Shown in pieces: positions 24,196 to 60,129 of a DNA stretch of 64,000 nucleotides (position 1 is the first letter of the stretch; every line of letters starts with the position of its first letter). Below the pieces are notes generated by a model that was given only the letters and a program-made list of their open reading frames with translations, ran no database searches and was not told the origin of the DNA. The stretch is from contig NZ_FNWL01000001.1 in the NCBI RefSeq assembly GCF_900108095.1, positions 1,302,001 to 1,366,000 of the forward strand, written 5' to 3'. The DNA is from Natronorubrum sediminis. GTDB taxonomy: Archaea; Halobacteriota; Halobacteria; Halobacteriales; Natrialbaceae. The translations under genes were made by a program, and so were the position numbers.

Positions 24196-24538
24196 GCAGT
24201 TGATCTTTCGTCCGGGTGTCGATGTGTGAAGAGGCGAGACGAATACGACAGCGAGGGCCCAACATCGAATTCTCGAGCGATTCAGGCACCGACAGAAGCG
24301 AAGCGGGAGTGAGTCAACGAGTCGAGTTGAGATGTCAACACGAGATTACGGTGACAGACAGTGGTGGTGTCGATATCGCGTTGGCTGCTGTCGACCGTGG
24401 CGAGAGAACGGCTCTCGCTGTCGTTTTTCGCACTTGCTGAGCGAACGTACGACGATTCCAGCCACTCGAACAGTTTCATATCGTGAATGTATCGGGCGGT
24501 ATATATCACCGAAGCCTGTCATCGAGATTCGATGATAC
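24196..24538. promoter_or_regulatory. Divergent intergenic region with carboxypeptidase promoter
   Basis: 343 bases between the FkbM gene (minus) and the carboxypeptidase gene (plus). A TATA-like tatatat lies at 24500-24506, 33-39 bases before the ATG at 24539, flanked by cggt and accg arms. A short perfect inverted repeat CATCGA-gat-TCGATG occupies 24520-24534, between TATA and start codon, and could be an operator. No gene is seen in the rest. Confidence 0.45.
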
Positions 24539-25981
24539 ATGTCAACAAATAACTCAGAGGGTGATGGAAACGTCGACCACGTCGAGTACGGCACCGTCGA
24601 ACACGACGATCCAGGCCCGGCGAGCGACGACACGTGGAACACCGTCGAGGCGGACAGCGCATCCGTCGCGTTCGACTGGGGGTTCGAAGACCCGCCTGCT
24701 GTCATCGTCGAACCGGCCGAAGAGACCTCGGTGGGTCTCCACCGAGCGATCAACGTCTCCGCGACGGGGTTCGAAACGCGGTGGATGGTCTACGACGACG
24801 ACTCCGAAGCCGTCGACGCCGACTGGGCCGCATTCGGCGAAGCAGCCCAGAGTCGCGGCCACGAACCCAGCGCGAGCGAGACGCACATCCGACCCGGCGG
24901 CCCCTGGCCGACCGAGACCCAGCAGTTGAACATCAACTCGTTACACGACTACGAGCAACTCGAGCGATCCCTCGAGCGAATCGAACGGAAGGGCAGCGGC
25001 GAGGTGACCGTCGAGTCCGTCGGGGAATCGAACGAGGGTCGCGACATCTACCTCGCGACGGCGGGATCGGGCGACACGGACGTGTTCCTCTTCGCCGAGC
25101 AACACGCGGACGAGGCGACGGGTTGTGAGGCGTTGTTGAACCTGCTCGACGAACTCGCTGCCGGGGGCAGGTGGAACGACCTGCTTTCGGAGTTAACGAT
25201 CCACGTGATGCCCCGAGCGAACCCGGACGGCACCGAGGTCGGCGAGTTGCGCCACCGGTTCAACGTCGATCCGGACGCCCCCGCGAGGGACGAATCGGTG
25301 GGAATCTACACCGACTACGACGACGCCGGCGTCGGCTGGGACGTCAATCGCTACCACTGGTTCGACTGGACCGAGAGCGAACTCTACCAGAACCTGCCCG
25401 AGGAGTACCCCGAGAATCCCGTTCCAGAGGCCCAGATTCTCGTCGATACCATCGAGGAGATCGACCCCCTCTGGGTCGCCGATTTCCACAACCAGTATCA
25501 CTACATCAGTGACGACGGCGAGAACATCACCGGCTCGGTCTACTGGCCGACATCACCCGGTGCCGACGACGACGCGGTCGACCTCTCGAAACAGCTCTGT
25601 CGTGGCATCTACGACGACGTCGACTCGCAGGGGAACACGACGCTCACCCAGTTCCCCGGCGGCGACGGCCGGGGCATCGCTCGAAACAGCTACGGCGAGG
25701 AGGGCATCGCCTGCGTCCTCATCGAGATGCGCGGCCAGACCGACGAGTTCGGCCAGAAATCCGGCGGCCAACTCATCAGAACCGCCTACGAGATGACGGT
25801 AAGCATGCTCGAGCGAACGGCCGACGAGTCCGTCTTCGACATCGACCCCGAGGCGGCCGACGAGATGCCAGAACGCGGCGAGCGCTACCAGCGAACGTTT
25901 CACCCCTCCGAGGAACTGGAAGCCGAACTCGAGGAGGATGAGGCGGAACTGGACGACGACTACTTCGAATGTACCTGCTAA
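24539..25981 (+). CDS. M14-family zinc carboxypeptidase with N-terminal H-type-lectin-like domain
   Basis: 480-residue protein. Residues about 12-95 form a small beta-rich domain (DDTWNTVEADSASVAFDWGF, PPAVIVEP, GFETRWMVY) resembling H-type lectin domains. It closely matches the C-terminal domain of the next gene product. Residues about 130-440 are a peptidase M14 domain. The zinc ligands H189 and E192 are in the motif HADE, H317 is in ADFHNQYHY, and catalytic E396 is in VLIEMRG. NPDGTE and NRYHW are also typical. No signal peptide is visible, so the protein is either cytoplasmic or exported unconventionally. It is followed after six bases by a gene for a Tat-signal protein sharing the lectin-like domain, so they form an operon. 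Specificity (peptide, amide or cell-wall-like substrate) is unknown. Confidence 0.85.
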   Translation: MSTNNSEGDGNVDHVEYGTVEHDDPGPASDDTWNTVEADSASVAFDWGFEDPPAVIVEPAEETSVGLHRAINVSATGFETRWMVYDDDSEAVDADWAAFGEAAQSRGHEPSASETHIRPGGPWPTETQQLNINSLHDYEQLERSLERIERKGSGEVTVESVGESNEGRDIYLATAGSGDTDVFLFAEQHADEATGCEALLNLLDELAAGGRWNDLLSELTIHVMPRANPDGTEVGELRHRFNVDPDAPARDESVGIYTDYDDAGVGWDVNRYHWFDWTESELYQNLPEEYPENPVPEAQILVDTIEEIDPLWVADFHNQYHYISDDGENITGSVYWPTSPGADDDAVDLSKQLCRGIYDDVDSQGNTTLTQFPGGDGRGIARNSYGEEGIACVLIEMRGQTDEFGQKSGGQLIRTAYEMTVSMLERTADESVFDIDPEAADEMPERGERYQRTFHPSEELEAELEEDEAELDDDYFECTC

Positions 25982-25987
25982 GCAGCC

Positions 25988-26578
25988 ATGACCAACGACA
26001 CACACTCCACGGCGGACGACCCGAAGCGGACTGACGAATCGAAATCGATCAACGAATCAAAGCCGGTCGATGGGAAGCAACCAGACGAGGCGACGAGCGA
26101 GCGCGAGCGGTCCTCGAGCAGCGCCCAATCGTCGAGCGGGGCGATCGATCCGACGAGCGATTCCGGGCTGGGCCTGGCACTCGAGCGCCGACACGTCATC
26201 GCGAGCACCCTCGCGGCAGTTGGCCTCGCCGGCGCGGGCACGGCACAGGCGAGACACGAAACCAGCGATCAGGACAATGAGCAGGGTCAGGGCCAGGGCG
26301 ATATCGACGTGAAGACGGGTCACATCTCCCACGAAAGTCCCGGAGCGGCCGACGACGGCACGTGGAACACGTACGAAGTCGACCAACAGACGGTCGAGTT
26401 CGAGCAATCGTTCGAAGCGCCGCCGGTCGTCTTCATCGGCGCAGCCGACTACACGACCATCGGCATGTTCCGAGCCATCGACGTCACGGAAAGCGGGTTC
26501 GAGTCCCGGTGGATGGTCTATCAGAGCGAGTCGTTCGCCCCGCCGGACGCACAGTGGGTCGCCGTGGGGCAATCATGA
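25988..26578 (+). CDS. Putative Tat-exported protein with H-type-lectin-like C-terminal domain
   Basis: 196-residue protein. Residues 1-66 are a long polar Ser/Asp/Glu stretch. A twin-arginine-like signal follows (RR at 67-68 in LERRHVIASTLAAVGLAGAG), ending near AQARHE. A Gln/Gly linker leads to an 80-residue domain at the C terminus (DDGTWNTYEVDQQTVEFEQS, PPVVFIGA, GFESRWMVYQ) that is clearly homologous to the N-terminal domain of the preceding carboxypeptidase. The start lies six bases behind that gene's stop. The Tat motif sits unusually deep in the chain, so export is plausible but not certain. The domain could bind glycans or form oligomers. Confidence 0.78.
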   Translation: MTNDTHSTADDPKRTDESKSINESKPVDGKQPDEATSERERSSSSAQSSSGAIDPTSDSGLGLALERRHVIASTLAAVGLAGAGTAQARHETSDQDNEQGQGQGDIDVKTGHISHESPGAADDGTWNTYEVDQQTVEFEQSFEAPPVVFIGAADYTTIGMFRAIDVTESGFESRWMVYQSESFAPPDAQWVAVGQS

Positions 26579-26910
26579 ACGTCGAGTACCGCGAAATCGC
26601 CAGTTCGAGCGATCCCTCCGATTCCCACCCCTGGTACGACATCGCCGTCGACGAGGAAGCCGGCACGCTACGGATCGAAGACGAAGCCGACGGCGGACTG
26701 GACGCGACGCTCTCGAGCGGCGAGGAGACCATCGGCGAGGGGAGCGACGTCGACACCGACAGCGACCTGATCGTCGCGTTGACCCAGGAGGGCGACCTCA
26801 TCACCTACAACACGGACGAGACCGAGGTGCCACCGCTTCGCGCGCATCTGGCCTGGTACGACGCGGCGACGGACACCCTCGAGGTGCTCGAGTTCGTCGA
26901 ACCTGCGTAG
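26575..26910 (+). CDS. Small acidic protein of unknown function, third gene of the carboxypeptidase locus
   Basis: 111-residue acidic protein starting with an ATG that overlaps the stop of the previous gene by four bases (ATGA), which strongly implies translational coupling. It has no signal peptide or membrane helix. Recognisable parts are HPWYDIAVDEEAGTLRIEDE, a Gly/Ser loop, and a beta-rich C-terminal half (LIVALTQEGDLITYN, HLAWYDAATDTLEVLEF). No family is recognised. Coupling suggests a shared function with the lectin-like protein, for example a subunit, chaperone or inhibitor; this is inference. Confidence 0.75.
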   Translation: MNVEYREIASSSDPSDSHPWYDIAVDEEAGTLRIEDEADGGLDATLSSGEETIGEGSDVDTDSDLIVALTQEGDLITYNTDETEVPPLRAHLAWYDAATDTLEVLEFVEPA

Positions 26911-55772: not shown

Positions 55773-56765
55773 ATGCAGAAGAAAATACCACGACGACGAT
55801 TCGTCGCAGCGAGTGGTGCCTTGGGACTCGCAGCGACCGCCGGCTGTATCGGCGAAGATGCCGAACCGGACGACGACGACGATGACGACGACGAAATCGG
55901 CGAGCCAGATCCGGACGGAGGCGAAATTCTCGAGTGGGACGCCGGTGGACAGAGTGGGACCTACTACCCGCTGTCGGGTGACTTCAAGAGTATCATCGAG
56001 TCGCAGACGTCACACGGGTTGCAGGTGCAATCTACCGGAGCGAGCGTCGAGAACGTCGGTCGCCTCGAGCGCGGCGAGTCCGACTTCGCCCTGATTCAAA
56101 ACGACGTCGGCTACTTCGCGTACAACGGCGTCGGGATCGACGAAATCGACGACGAGATGACGAGCCTTCGCGCCGTCGGCTCGTTGTACCCCGAAACAAT
56201 CCACATCGTCGCGGATGCCGACGCCGACGTCGAATCGATCGAAGACCTCGACGGCGCGACGGTCAACGTGGGCGACGAGGGGAGTGGGACCGAGGTCAAC
56301 GCCCAGCAGATCCTCGAAACGGCGGGCGTCGAGGCCGACGAGCAGACCGGAGACTTCGCCACGGCGGCCGACCAGATCCGAGACGGGGGCATCGACGCCG
56401 CCGTCATCGTCGGCGGCTGGCCAGTCGGCGCGGTCGACGAACTTGCAGAGACGACGGACATCACGTTGGTCGAGGTTCCCGAAGACATTCGGGCGGACTT
56501 GATGGACGAAGCCGAGTGGTTCTCCGAGGACGAGATCCCCGGTGGTACCTACGAGGGAGCCGACGACGACGTACAGACCGTGTCGGTCGAGGCGATGATC
56601 GCCACTCACGAAGGCGTCGACGACGAAATCGTCGAGGAAGTGACCGAGGCCATCTTCGAGAACACGGACGACGTCACCCAGAAAGAAGAGTACATCGACG
56701 CAGAATCGGCGCAGGACGCCATTCCGATCGACTTCCACCCCGGCGCTGGAGCGTACTTCGACTGA
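55773..56765 (+). CDS. TAXI-family TRAP transporter solute-binding lipoprotein
   Basis: 330-residue substrate-binding protein. The N terminus is a twin-arginine lipoprotein signal (PRRRFVAASGALGLAATAGC, lipidated Cys25), followed by an acidic linker. The mature part has the TAXI pattern: WDAGGQSGTYYPLSGDFKSI, TGASVENVGRLERGESDFAL, DLDGATVNVGDEGSGTEVNA, IVGGWPVGAVDELAE. It delivers an unknown solute (organic acids or amino acids are typical) to the fused permease two genes on. ATG at 55773 is chosen over an in-frame start at 55665 because it places the Tat motif at the N terminus. Confidence 0.93.
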   Translation: MQKKIPRRRFVAASGALGLAATAGCIGEDAEPDDDDDDDDEIGEPDPDGGEILEWDAGGQSGTYYPLSGDFKSIIESQTSHGLQVQSTGASVENVGRLERGESDFALIQNDVGYFAYNGVGIDEIDDEMTSLRAVGSLYPETIHIVADADADVESIEDLDGATVNVGDEGSGTEVNAQQILETAGVEADEQTGDFATAADQIRDGGIDAAVIVGGWPVGAVDELAETTDITLVEVPEDIRADLMDEAEWFSEDEIPGGTYEGADDDVQTVSVEAMIATHEGVDDEIVEEVTEAIFENTDDVTQKEEYIDAESAQDAIPIDFHPGAGAYFD

Positions 56766-56873
56766 TAGCGACGGCCGATCGAGGTCGACGCCTACCGCCG
56801 ACTCGCGTTTCTGTCGAACTCGAGTCGCTGGTTGATCGACTCACCGACCGACTCACTTCACCCACTCTCTATC

Positions 56874-57389
56874 GTGGTTCGACTGACCCGTCGACGCGCG
56901 CTCGCCCTTACCGCGGCCACTGGAGCCACGGCTATCGGGACGATTGGGGCCGTCGCGACGAGCGCGTCGGCCGACCGAACCCTGATCGTCGCCGACGCCG
57001 CCGACGGTGACGCCCTCCTCGAGATTCCGGTCGACGACGGAGAAGAACTAACCCTTTCGTACACCCACAGCGTCGAAAAGACGCCCGTCGAAGACGTCTA
57101 CGTCGTCGATGGAGACGTGCTCCGGATGGATCGGATGGTCTTTCAGTCGTTCGGCGCGGGCCTCCCCACCGACGATATCGAGCGAACCGACGAGGGGTAC
57201 GTCCGCGAGAGCGACGAATCGACCGAGGAACTGCGCGTCACACCGGGATCGATCGCCGGCCACGAACTGGTCGTCGGGGCCGAACGGTACGATCTGGTGG
57301 AGCGATCTGACGGACGGACCGTCACGCTCTCGGTGACCGACCGAACGCTGCGAGACGCGCTCGAAACGACCGTCGACCACGAGCGATAG
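56874..57389 (+). CDS. DUF1850 protein of the TAXI-TRAP operon
   Basis: 171-residue protein with a Tat-like N terminus (LTRRRALALTAATGATAIG), an expected cleavage near ATSASA, and a beta-rich mature domain (LTLSYTHSVEKTPVEDVYVV, FQSFGAGLPTD). DUF1850 proteins occur next to TAXI-TRAP permeases in bacteria and archaea and probably act outside the membrane with the transporter. The start is taken as GTG 56874. It lies between the binding protein and the permease genes. Confidence 0.85.
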   Translation: MVRLTRRRALALTAATGATAIGTIGAVATSASADRTLIVADAADGDALLEIPVDDGEELTLSYTHSVEKTPVEDVYVVDGDVLRMDRMVFQSFGAGLPTDDIERTDEGYVRESDESTEELRVTPGSIAGHELVVGAERYDLVERSDGRTVTLSVTDRTLRDALETTVDHER

Positions 57390-57411
57390 CGACGCGCTCC
57401 CTACTGCCACT

Positions 57412-60129
57412 ATGAGCGAAGATCACCACGACGAAAACGCACTCTCTGAGGACGAACAGGACGAACTGCTCCAGGAAGTTCAACGGCGTCGAACGCTCAG
57501 CGGACTCGCGGCCGCGCTCGTCGCCCTGATCGGCATCTCGTTTTCGGCGTTCCAGATGTGGATCGCCGCCCGCAGTTATTACTTCGGCGCGACACTGCCA
57601 CTGGTCGGCGAAATCGAACTGGGATCGCTCGAGCCCCTACAGATATACACGGTCCACGTGACGTTCGCGCTGGTCCTGGCATTTCTCCTCTTTCCGGCCA
57701 GTCGCGGCGAGGGCTTCGTCGCCCGCTCTCTCGGCCGAATCGAACCCGCCGTCAGTCGTCGAACTGGACCGGATTCGACGCTCGAGAGACTCGTCACTCG
57801 ACTCGGTGACGCCGTGCGTTGGGTGTTCGTCGACCCGTCGATGAGTCGCGTGACGCCCATCGACGTCGTCTGTATCGTCCTCTCGATACTTCCCGCGCAC
57901 TTCATCGTCACCAACTACGACCAACGACAGGATATGGCGATCGTCGGTATCGGCGACGTCGACGCGCTGCACGAGATCTATCCGTGGCTCGAGCCAGTCG
58001 TGATGGCCGTCGCCACGCTCGGGATCCCGCTCGACGAGGTGCCGTTCGGCTTCGTAATTGGGGCACTCGGCCTCCTGTTAGTGCTCGAGGCGACACGACG
58101 GACCCTCGGCGTGCTCCTCATGTCGCTCGTGGCGTCGTTCATCGTCTACGCGCGGTGGGGCCACTTCATCCCGCGAGACTCGCTGCTCGGTCCGCTCGCA
58201 ATTACGCCCGAAACCTGGGGGAACATCGTCTACAACCTCTGGTTCACCACGGAAGCGGGCGTCATGAGCACGCCCGTCAGCGTCAGCGTCCGGTTCATCT
58301 TCATCTTCATCCTCTTCGGCGCGTTCCTCGAGATGAGCGGCGCTGGCAAGTGGTTCATCGATCTCGCGTACTCGCTGACGGGAACCCGAAAGGGCGGCCC
58401 GGCGAAAGCGAGCACCGTCTCGAGTGGCTTCATGGGAATGCTTTCGGGGTCGTCGATCGCGAACACGGTGACGACCGGCGCGTTCACGATTCCGCTGATG
58501 AAGCGCTCGGGGTACTCACCCGAGTTCTCCGGGGCCGTCGAGTCGTCGGCCTCCTCGGGCGGCCAGATGCTCCCGCCGGTGATGGGTGCGGCCGCCTTCC
58601 TGATCATGGAGTTCACGGGCACTCCCTTCGACGAGGTGATCATCGCCGCCACGCTTCCAGCGATCGCCTTCTTCTTCGGCATGTGGGTGATGGTCCACTT
58701 CGAGGCCGTCAAGAGCGGAGTCGGTGGCCTCCCGCGGTCGAAGCTTCCGGACGCGTCCGACGCGTTACGAACCGGCTGGTTCTACCTCATTCCCGTCTTG
58801 CTCCTCCTGTATTACCTCGTGATCGCTCGCCTCTCGGTCAACCGCGCCGGCTGGTTGACGATCGTCGCCGTCATCGCCGTCATCGCGCTCGTCGCCGCTT
58901 ACGACGAACGGACGGGAATTCCGTTGCTCACGACGATCGTCGCGATTGCTCTCGCACAGGTCGGTGCGTACGCGACCGTCGGCGGCGGATTGGTCGACGC
59001 GGGACAGGTCTTCGCGGGCCTCGAGAGCGCCGCCGAGCCCTATGCCATCGGTGCCGCCGTCTCCGCCGCGGTGTCTGACCTCGGCGTGATCACGATCCTC
59101 GTTAGCGTCGCGTTCGTACTGGCTCGGCCGCTCGCCGACGCGCCGCTGCTCGACTTCGACGACGCCGTCGACAGCTCGGCCGAGCGCACCGCGAAGGCGA
59201 TTGGCCGACCGAGTATGGCCTCGAGCAGGGCCTACCAGTTCGGTACCTTCGTGTTGAAGTCGATGGACTCCGGCGCGCGTACCGCGACGACGGTGGTCAT
59301 CGCCGTCGCCGCGGCGGGCGTGGTTCCGGGCGTCATCAGCGTCTCCGGACTCGGGCCGAATCTCGCGTCGCTCATCGAGAGCGTCAGCGGGGGGTCGATG
59401 TTGCTCTTGCTCGTCCTGACCGGCGTCGCGTCGATCATCTTCGGGATGGGGATGCCGACGACCGCGATGTACATCATCCTGGTCGCGATGCTCGAGACAC
59501 CGCTCGTCGAAGCCGGAATCGGACTCCTGGCGGCGCACCTCTTCATCCTCTACTTCGGGCTGATGGCGGACGTGACCCCGCCGGTCGCCGTCGCCGCCTT
59601 CGCCGGCGCGGGGGTCGCTAAAGCCGACGAGATGGCGACGGCAGTGACTGCGTTCTTGCTCTCGCTCAACAAGGTGCTCGTGCCGTTCGCGTTCGTCTTT
59701 TCGCCGGGAATCCTCCTCCTGCGCGAAGGAGAGGACGGCTGGGGGATGATCGGCTGGGCAGACGTCGCCGACCTCGGCTTCTTCGTCCCCGACGTGATGA
59801 TCCCGGTGCTCGGGATGTTCCTCGGCGTCTACGCCCTCGCCGTCACGATCATCGGCTACCAGTACACGCGCGTCGACACCGTCGACCGGGCGCTGTACTC
59901 GGTCGCGTCGATCCTGCTCATGGTGCCGGAACTATCCCTGCTCGTCGTCGAGTTACTCCTCACCCTCCTCGGTATCCCCTCGCACCTGACCATCTTCGTG
60001 ATCACCTTCCCGCTTCGCGTCATCGGCCTCGTTCTGCTCGCCGGCCTCACCTATCGCAACCGGGCTCGAGCGGACGAAGGTGAGTCGGCCGAGTCCACCG
60101 TGTCGACGCCGACGGTGAGTGACGCCTGA
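57412..60129 (+). CDS. Fused TRAP transporter permease (4TM/12TM)
   Basis: 905-residue membrane protein fusing the small (DctQ-like) and large (DctM-like) TRAP subunits, the form used with TAXI binding proteins. Key stretches: GSSIANTVTTGAFTIPLMKR with SGGQMLPPVMGAAAFLI, and IFGMGMPTTAMYIILVAMLE with GLMADVTPPVAVAAFAGAG. A C-terminal extension of about 150 residues with further helices is present. It is coupled with the lipoprotein and DUF1850 genes, spaced 22 bases behind the latter. Transport is driven by Na+ or proton gradients; the substrate is not predictable. Confidence 0.95.
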   Translation: MSEDHHDENALSEDEQDELLQEVQRRRTLSGLAAALVALIGISFSAFQMWIAARSYYFGATLPLVGEIELGSLEPLQIYTVHVTFALVLAFLLFPASRGEGFVARSLGRIEPAVSRRTGPDSTLERLVTRLGDAVRWVFVDPSMSRVTPIDVVCIVLSILPAHFIVTNYDQRQDMAIVGIGDVDALHEIYPWLEPVVMAVATLGIPLDEVPFGFVIGALGLLLVLEATRRTLGVLLMSLVASFIVYARWGHFIPRDSLLGPLAITPETWGNIVYNLWFTTEAGVMSTPVSVSVRFIFIFILFGAFLEMSGAGKWFIDLAYSLTGTRKGGPAKASTVSSGFMGMLSGSSIANTVTTGAFTIPLMKRSGYSPEFSGAVESSASSGGQMLPPVMGAAAFLIMEFTGTPFDEVIIAATLPAIAFFFGMWVMVHFEAVKSGVGGLPRSKLPDASDALRTGWFYLIPVLLLLYYLVIARLSVNRAGWLTIVAVIAVIALVAAYDERTGIPLLTTIVAIALAQVGAYATVGGGLVDAGQVFAGLESAAEPYAIGAAVSAAVSDLGVITILVSVAFVLARPLADAPLLDFDDAVDSSAERTAKAIGRPSMASSRAYQFGTFVLKSMDSGARTATTVVIAVAAAGVVPGVISVSGLGPNLASLIESVSGGSMLLLLVLTGVASIIFGMGMPTTAMYIILVAMLETPLVEAGIGLLAAHLFILYFGLMADVTPPVAVAAFAGAGVAKADEMATAVTAFLLSLNKVLVPFAFVFSPGILLLREGEDGWGMIGWADVADLGFFVPDVMIPVLGMFLGVYALAVTIIGYQYTRVDTVDRALYSVASILLMVPELSLLVVELLLTLLGIPSHLTIFVITFPLRVIGLVLLAGLTYRNRARADEGESAESTVSTPTVSDA

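What the first reader, a model, noticed from the sequence alone, without database searches (positions are those of the whole stretch)
24539..26910. Three-gene operon: M14 carboxypeptidase and Tat protein sharing a lectin-like domain, plus a coupled small protein
The carboxypeptidase N terminus (about residues 12-95) and the C terminus of the next protein (about 115-196) are clearly homologous (DDxTWNTxE, FExPPxV, GFExRWMVY), and the domain resembles H-type lectins. One protein has the full zinc-peptidase site but no signal; the other has a Tat-like signal but no enzyme. The third gene overlaps the second by ATGA. A shared domain on an intracellular and a putatively exported partner suggests a common ligand or hetero-oligomer, possibly a surface glycoprotein-processing or competition system. 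I know of no description of it.
Basis: partly seen in the sequence, partly recalled or inferred. Interest (0 to 1): 0.7.

Follow-up and report, generated by a model that had tools for sequence, protein, structure and literature searches.

The report
Carboxypeptidase possibly exported by lectin partner
In a salt-loving archaeon, an enzyme that has lost its own export tag carries the same rare lectin domain as the tagged protein encoded next to it, which suggests that the two assemble inside the cell and leave together; no such arrangement turned up in the papers searched, and nothing has been shown at the bench.

Summary
Three co-directional genes (24539-25981, 25988-26578, 26575-26910) encode a signal-less M14 metallocarboxypeptidase with an N-terminal lectin domain, a Tat-signal protein ending in a 46%-identical lectin domain, and a 111-residue protein with no detectable relatives. 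The domain is an H-type lectin: profile hits to Helix agglutinins and discoidins, and a predicted six-strand model whose best solved matches are those same lectins. The three genes occur together or not at all: in 3 of 392 genomes sampled from the order, including Halostagnicola sp. A-GB9-2, where identity covers the genes but not the flanks. All three genes are under purifying selection. The new point: 42 of 44 M14 relatives without the lectin carry a Tat signal. The lectin-bearing enzymes are one clade nested among them, and the lectin sits where the signal was. Other haloarchaeal H-lectin proteins with a readable N terminus are nearly all Tat-exported hydrolases. Best explanation (inferred): the enzyme is exported as a Tat hitchhiker, through hetero-oligomerisation of the paralogous lectin domains, and the lectins then hold it at a glycan-bearing surface. 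Rival: the enzyme simply became cytosolic. The complex could not be modelled (pLDDT 28). New variant of a known kind.

The parts
24500..24505 (+). TATATA element about 35 bp before the first ATG: the likely single archaeal promoter of the unit (near-leaderless transcript)
   Evidence: read by eye; also present in the same-genus genome G200, not evident in G318; not tested
24539..25981 (+). Gene 1: 480-aa M14 zinc carboxypeptidase with an N-terminal H-type lectin domain and no export signal
   Evidence: orthologues in G200 (98%) and Halostagnicola G318 (87%)
24578..24847 (+). Lectin domain 1 (residues about 14-103), lying where the Tat signal lies in the relatives of gene 1
   Evidence: 46% identical to lectin domain 2
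24962..25738 (+). Peptidase_M14 catalytic domain (residues 142-400); H189, E192, H317 as presumed zinc ligands, N270-R271 as presumed carboxylate site, E396 as presumed catalytic Glu
   Evidence: Pfam; residues invariant among relatives; roles assigned by motif analogy
25964..25978 (+). C-terminal FECTC tail, identical in all three operons and absent from the relatives
   Evidence: role unknown
25988..26578 (+). Gene 2: 196-aa protein with a long hydrophilic N region, a Tat-type signal, a Gly/Gln-rich linker and a lectin domain
26177..26251 (+). Tat-type signal (ALERRHVIASTLAAVGLAGAGTAQA, about residues 64-88)
   Evidence: block conserved in G200 and G318
26297..26575 (+). Lectin domain 2 (residues 104-196), H-type lectin fold
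   Evidence: Pfam; AlphaFold2 model pLDDT 81.6, pTM 0.72; Foldseek best solved matches are Helix agglutinins, with discoidins further down the list
26575..26910 (+). Gene 3: 111-aa acidic protein, start codon inside ATGA (translationally coupled), no relatives outside this operon
   Evidence: dN/dS about 0.20 against G318

Best explanation
The three genes make one secreted, lectin-armed carboxypeptidase complex. Shown from sequence: an ancestrally Tat-exported M14 carboxypeptidase lost its signal peptide and carries in its place an H-type lectin domain; the next gene supplies a Tat signal joined to a paralogous copy of the same domain; the genes travel together. Inferred: the two lectin domains co-assemble in the cytoplasm (H-type lectins are trimers), the folded heteromer is exported by Tat on the signal of protein 2 (hitchhiker export), and outside the lectin ring holds the zinc carboxypeptidase at a glycan such as the S-layer or exopolysaccharide, where it trims peptide C termini. 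Most speculative: the coupled 111-residue protein stays inside as a dedicated assembly or proofreading factor, as HybE and PaoD are thought to do for bacterial hitchhiker pairs.
For: (1) 42 of 44 lectin-free M14 relatives begin with a Tat-like signal (39 by a strict rule, 3 near-variants by eye), whereas all three lectin-bearing ones have none. (2) In a maximum-likelihood tree the lectin-bearing enzymes are one clade (100/100) nested among Tat carriers, so signal loss is derived. (3) The domain occupies the place of the signal, just before the shared mature start H(I/V)xPxGPW. (4) The partner's domain groups with the enzyme's domain to the exclusion of every other haloarchaeal H-lectin found (100/99). 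(5) Of 24 haloarchaeal H-lectin matches, most carry a Tat signal by rule or by eye and the rest have a cut or unreadable N terminus; they are mostly hydrolases. (6) Genes 1, 2 and 3 are all present or all absent: 3 of 125 family genomes, 3 of 392 order genomes, one of them with unrelated flanks. (7) dN/dS 0.09, 0.23 and 0.20 against G318. (8) The fold is that of trimeric lectins (PMC5712786). (9) Hitchhiker Tat export is a real mechanism (HybOC, PaoABC; PMC4273604), and an H-type-lectin-like domain trimer is known to capture a secreted protein (TcpB-TcpF, PMC9565799).
Against: No direct evidence of contact between the two proteins: the joined-chain model failed (pLDDT 28, pTM 0.19). A second M14 lineage (L012, L077) also lost its signal without a lectin domain or an evident Tat partner nearby, so plain return to the cytosol can happen. 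The N region before the twin arginines of gene 2 is unusually long (66 residues). The amino-acid make-up of the catalytic domain does not tell exported from cytosolic. Only three operons are known, two of them in one genus.
Confidence: 0.5

Rival explanations
1. Cytosolic enzyme: gene 1 lost its signal and now works inside the cell. Its lectin domain only makes a homotrimer or binds a cytosolic sugar precursor, and gene 2 is a separate secreted lectin for the same sugar.
For: No signal and no hydrophobic segment in gene 1; another M14 lineage also lost its signal (L012, L077); the Arg aligned with the sugar-side Arg of Helix agglutinin is kept in both domains (its role is recalled from memory).
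Against: Does not explain why the loss coincides with gaining the very domain of an adjacent Tat protein, nor the strict three-gene linkage.
Confidence: 0.22
2. Receptor and cargo without Tat co-export: protein 2 is an exported surface anchor, and protein 1 gets out another way (lysis or vesicles) and is recaptured through lectin-lectin pairing.
For: Shared domain and linked genes; H-type-lectin-like trimers can capture secreted proteins (PMC9565799).
Against: Needs an extra unknown export route; Tat export as a folded complex needs none.
Confidence: 0.1
3. Regulatory or competition system: protein 1 is an effector-like peptidase, protein 3 its cytosolic inhibitor or immunity protein, protein 2 the targeting part.
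For: Coupled small protein found only in this operon; sporadic distribution and unrelated flanks suggest a mobile cassette.
Against: No toxin, immunity or delivery features found; protein 3 matches nothing; family members look like ordinary secreted peptidases.
Confidence: 0.1
4. Chance or artefact: misannotated start, or a stop codon read through so that genes 1 and 2 form one fused protein.
For: Genes 1 and 2 are in the same frame 6 bases apart in the window and, by coordinates, in G200.
Against: In G318 the two genes are in different frames (1448 bases between starts); an in-frame stop lies just before the ATG of gene 1; the start MSTxxS is conserved.
Confidence: 0.03

Closest known systems
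Tat hitchhiker complexes: hydrogenase-2 HybOC and aldehyde oxidoreductase PaoABC of E. coli (PMC4273604)
   Same: A signal-less enzyme subunit is encoded beside a Tat-signal partner; a small coupled protein fits the place of a dedicated chaperone (HybE, PaoD).
   Different: Here the partners share a paralogous lectin domain that would serve as the pairing module; the enzyme is a zinc peptidase without redox cofactors; archaeal; co-export not shown.
H-type lectins: Helix pomatia and Helix aspersa agglutinins, discoidin I and II
   Same: Fold (Foldseek probability 1.00, TM mostly 0.72-0.77) and sequence profile (E 6e-4 for the Helix lectins, 0.013 and 0.04 for the discoidins).
   Different: About 16-19% identity; the His and Trp recalled for the Helix sugar site are replaced by Gln or Asp and Tyr in the alignment; split over two genes, one fused to an enzyme.
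Haloarchaeal Tat-exported H-lectin hydrolases (subtilase L046, polysaccharide deacetylase L060, GH-like L042 and L045, AstE-like peptidases L048 and L051)
   Same: H-lectin domains attached to secreted hydrolases.
   Different: Signal and lectin are in the same chain there; usually several lectin copies, not one domain in place of the signal; domains only about 21-26% identical.
Type IVb minor pilin TcpB with TcpF (PMC9565799)
   Same: An H-type-lectin-like domain trimer acts as a protein-recognition module in secretion.
   Different: Pilus-based bacterial secretion; not Tat; no lectin domain shared between cargo and carrier is described.

Membership tests
Peptidase family M14 (PF00246) | Profile match above the curated cut-off | tested here: met
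   70.3 bits against 21.6; 75.4 and 69.1 bits in the orthologues
Peptidase family M14 (PF00246) | Zinc ligands HxxE and H, catalytic Glu, Asn-Arg carboxylate site | tested here: met
   H189, E192, N270-R271, H317, E396 invariant among five sequences; roles by analogy
Peptidase family M14 (PF00246) | Carboxypeptidase activity | not testable with these tools
   needs an assay
H-type lectin (PF09458) | Profile match above the curated cut-off | tested here: inconclusive
   gene 2: 22.4 bits against 24, at the cut-off in the genome search (24.0); orthologue 23.6; gene 1 domain not matched itself, only through gene 2
H-type lectin (PF09458) | Six-strand antiparallel sandwich like Helix agglutinin | tested here: met
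   model pLDDT 81.6, six strands; best solved matches 2ce6, 2ccv, 4q56, E about 1e-4, TM 0.73
H-type lectin (PF09458) | Trimeric assembly and sugar binding | not testable with these tools
   no complex prediction available; no assay
Tat substrate (gene 2) | Twin arginine, uncharged hydrophobic stretch, AxA | tested here: met
   ERRHVIASTLAAVGLAGAGTAQA, rule; conserved in three orthologues
Tat hitchhiker pair | Enzyme without any export signal beside a Tat-signal partner in one operon | tested here: met
Tat hitchhiker pair | Partners form a complex before export | tested here: inconclusive
   joined-chain prediction failed, pLDDT 28
Tat hitchhiker pair | Export of the signal-less partner depends on the other's signal | not testable with these tools
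   needs fractionation in a genetic host

The most novel reading that the evidence does not exclude
A signal peptide supplied in trans through a duplicated lectin domain: an exported enzyme exchanged its own Tat signal for a copy of its neighbour's H-type lectin domain, so that hetero-trimer formation licenses export. This would be the first archaeal, cofactor-free, lectin-mediated Tat hitchhiker known to me.
Probability: 0.45. Interest if true: 0.72.

Novelty: new variant of a known kind. Interest (0 to 1): 0.55.

Why it matters
Haloarchaea send much of their secretome through Tat in folded form, yet secretome predictors score single chains, so signal-less partners are called cytosolic. A short, three-gene, cofactor-free case in which pairing is done by an identifiable module would make Tat export of archaeal heteromers directly testable in Haloferax volcanii and would give a sequence rule (a shared domain on a signal-less and a Tat-tagged neighbour) for finding more.

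Tried and rejected
Fused read-through protein: genes 1 and 2 are in one frame in the window but not in G318, so rejected. AlphaFold2 of the two joined chains: unusable, pLDDT 28 with a three-row alignment, so no contact claim is made. Amino-acid composition as a test of location: lectin-bearing, Tat and signal-less enzymes overlap. Phage origin: no relatives in IMG/VR contigs or PHROGs; the best viral fold match is a Halorubrum virus BJ1 protein, fold level only. Structured RNA: none in the 23-28 kb stretch. Relatives of protein 3: only the two operon orthologues; the weak hits near E=0.002-0.009 lie mostly in long unrelated frames and are taken as chance. A viral-contig scan with the wider lectin alignment could not run because no stretch was conserved enough. 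Loci taken only through the whole-genome tools were not handed to structure prediction because its stated rule does not name them.

Full report
What is there. The window is haloarchaeal. Protein 1 is an M14 peptidase (E=2.8e-19) with the presumed zinc ligands H189, E192, H317, the Asn-Arg pair N270-R271 and the Glu E396 conserved among relatives. Protein 2 carries a twin-arginine signal after a 66-residue hydrophilic N region and an H_lectin match at its C terminus. Protein 3 matches no family in Pfam or PHROGs and no solved structure.

The shared domain. Residues 14-103 of protein 1 and 105-196 of protein 2 are 46% identical (E=4e-26). Pfam places protein 2 just below its H_lectin cut-off (22.4 against 24 bits). 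A profile of these domains with other haloarchaeal H-lectins finds the Helix agglutinins and discoidins at the top of the PDB (Helix E=6e-4, discoidins 0.013 and 0.04). AlphaFold2 gives the domain six strands with pLDDT 81.6 and pTM 0.72, and Foldseek returns Helix agglutinins as the best solved matches and discoidins further down (probability 1.00, TM mostly 0.72-0.77). Discoidin II is a trimer and Helix agglutinin a hexamer (PMC5712786).

Distribution. The window's genome and a same-genus genome (G200) share the unit with their flanks (98%, 92% and 93% identity for protein 1, lectin domain 2 and protein 3). Halostagnicola sp. A-GB9-2 (G318, NZ_JASJOC010000011.1) has the same three genes in the same order with the same overlap (87, 60 and 72%), and DNA similarity covers the three genes (window 24531-26903) without any matching flank. 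No genome searched has one without the others: 3 of 125 genomes of the family for the lectin type, 3 of 392 of the order for convincing protein 3. A scan of about 85,000 species genomes found only the Halostagnicola locus; records of the window's own genome or ones very near it may be left out there. dN/dS against Halostagnicola is 0.09, 0.23 and 0.20 (ratios of the values), so all three genes are maintained.

What became of the signal. DNA for 47 M14 relatives was read. Of the 44 without a lectin domain, 39 have a Tat signal by a fixed rule and three more a near-variant (QR, KR, or a Lys in the hydrophobic stretch; L010, L020, L025). Only L012 and L077, a separate long branch, have none. None of the three lectin-bearing enzymes has a signal, and in the window no alternative upstream start is possible because a stop lies one codon upstream. 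In the tree they form one clade with full support, nested among Tat carriers. Their lectin domain ends just before the segment (HIRPGGPW) that opens the mature part of the closest relatives. So a signal was lost where a lectin domain was gained. The 47 are those whose DNA was fetched, not an exhaustive set.

The other haloarchaeal H-lectins. PF09458 is found in 14 of 392 genomes of the order. Reading the frames shows lectin domains joined to a subtilase, a polysaccharide deacetylase, glycosidase-like proteins and AstE-like peptidases (assigned by eye), nearly always behind a Tat signal when the N terminus is readable. The domains of the present operon form their own clade against all of these (100/99), consistent with one duplication inside the operon ancestor before the G000-G318 split.

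Mechanism. The simplest reading that uses all of this is export in trans: the enzyme traded its signal for a domain that pairs with the Tat-tagged neighbour, and the folded pair leaves together, as HybOC and PaoABC do in E. coli (PMC4273604). That H-type-lectin-like trimers can act as protein-recognition modules in secretion is known from TcpB-TcpF (PMC9565799). Outside, the lectin ring would keep the carboxypeptidase on a glycan surface. Shown: anatomy, homology, fold, linkage, selection, derived loss of signal. Inferred: pairing, co-export, glycan binding, role of protein 3. The main rival, a cytosolic enzyme, is kept alive by the second signal loss in L012 and L077 and by the failure of the joined-chain model.

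Literature. Searches for H-type lectins with haloarchaea or archaea and for Halostagnicola carboxypeptidases returned nothing on such a system. Only open-licence papers are held, so absence there is weak evidence.

Noticed in passing
L062:14571-14715: A decayed fragment of a second copy of gene 1 (its first about 50 residues) lies 3 kb downstream of the intact operon in Halostagnicola, suggesting past duplication or mobility.
   Followed up: partly
25964-25978: C-terminal FECTC of gene 1, identical in all three operons and absent from the relatives; possible metal, disulphide or modification site.
   Followed up: no
L048, L051: Tat-exported AstE/AspA-like peptidases (by eye) with about three C-terminal H-lectin domains: an independent joining of an M14-superfamily enzyme with H-type lectins in the same order.
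   Followed up: no
L042, L045, L046, L058, L060: H-type lectin arrays in Tat-exported subtilase, deacetylase, parallel-beta-helix-like and glycosidase-like proteins of haloarchaea; no paper on haloarchaeal H-type lectins was found.
   Followed up: partly
L006, L007, L070, L071: Closest Tat-type M14 relatives carry two extra C-terminal repeats (WxxLNDxxACSV...RxRMGxxARSRFY) of unknown type.
   Followed up: no
55800-60060: In two family genomes (G150, G117) the Tat-type M14 gene sits beside homologues of this window stretch, 30 kb from the operon here.
   Followed up: no
L012, L077: A second M14 lineage without signal peptide, next to a gene whose frame resembles heparinase-type proteins by eye.
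   Followed up: partly
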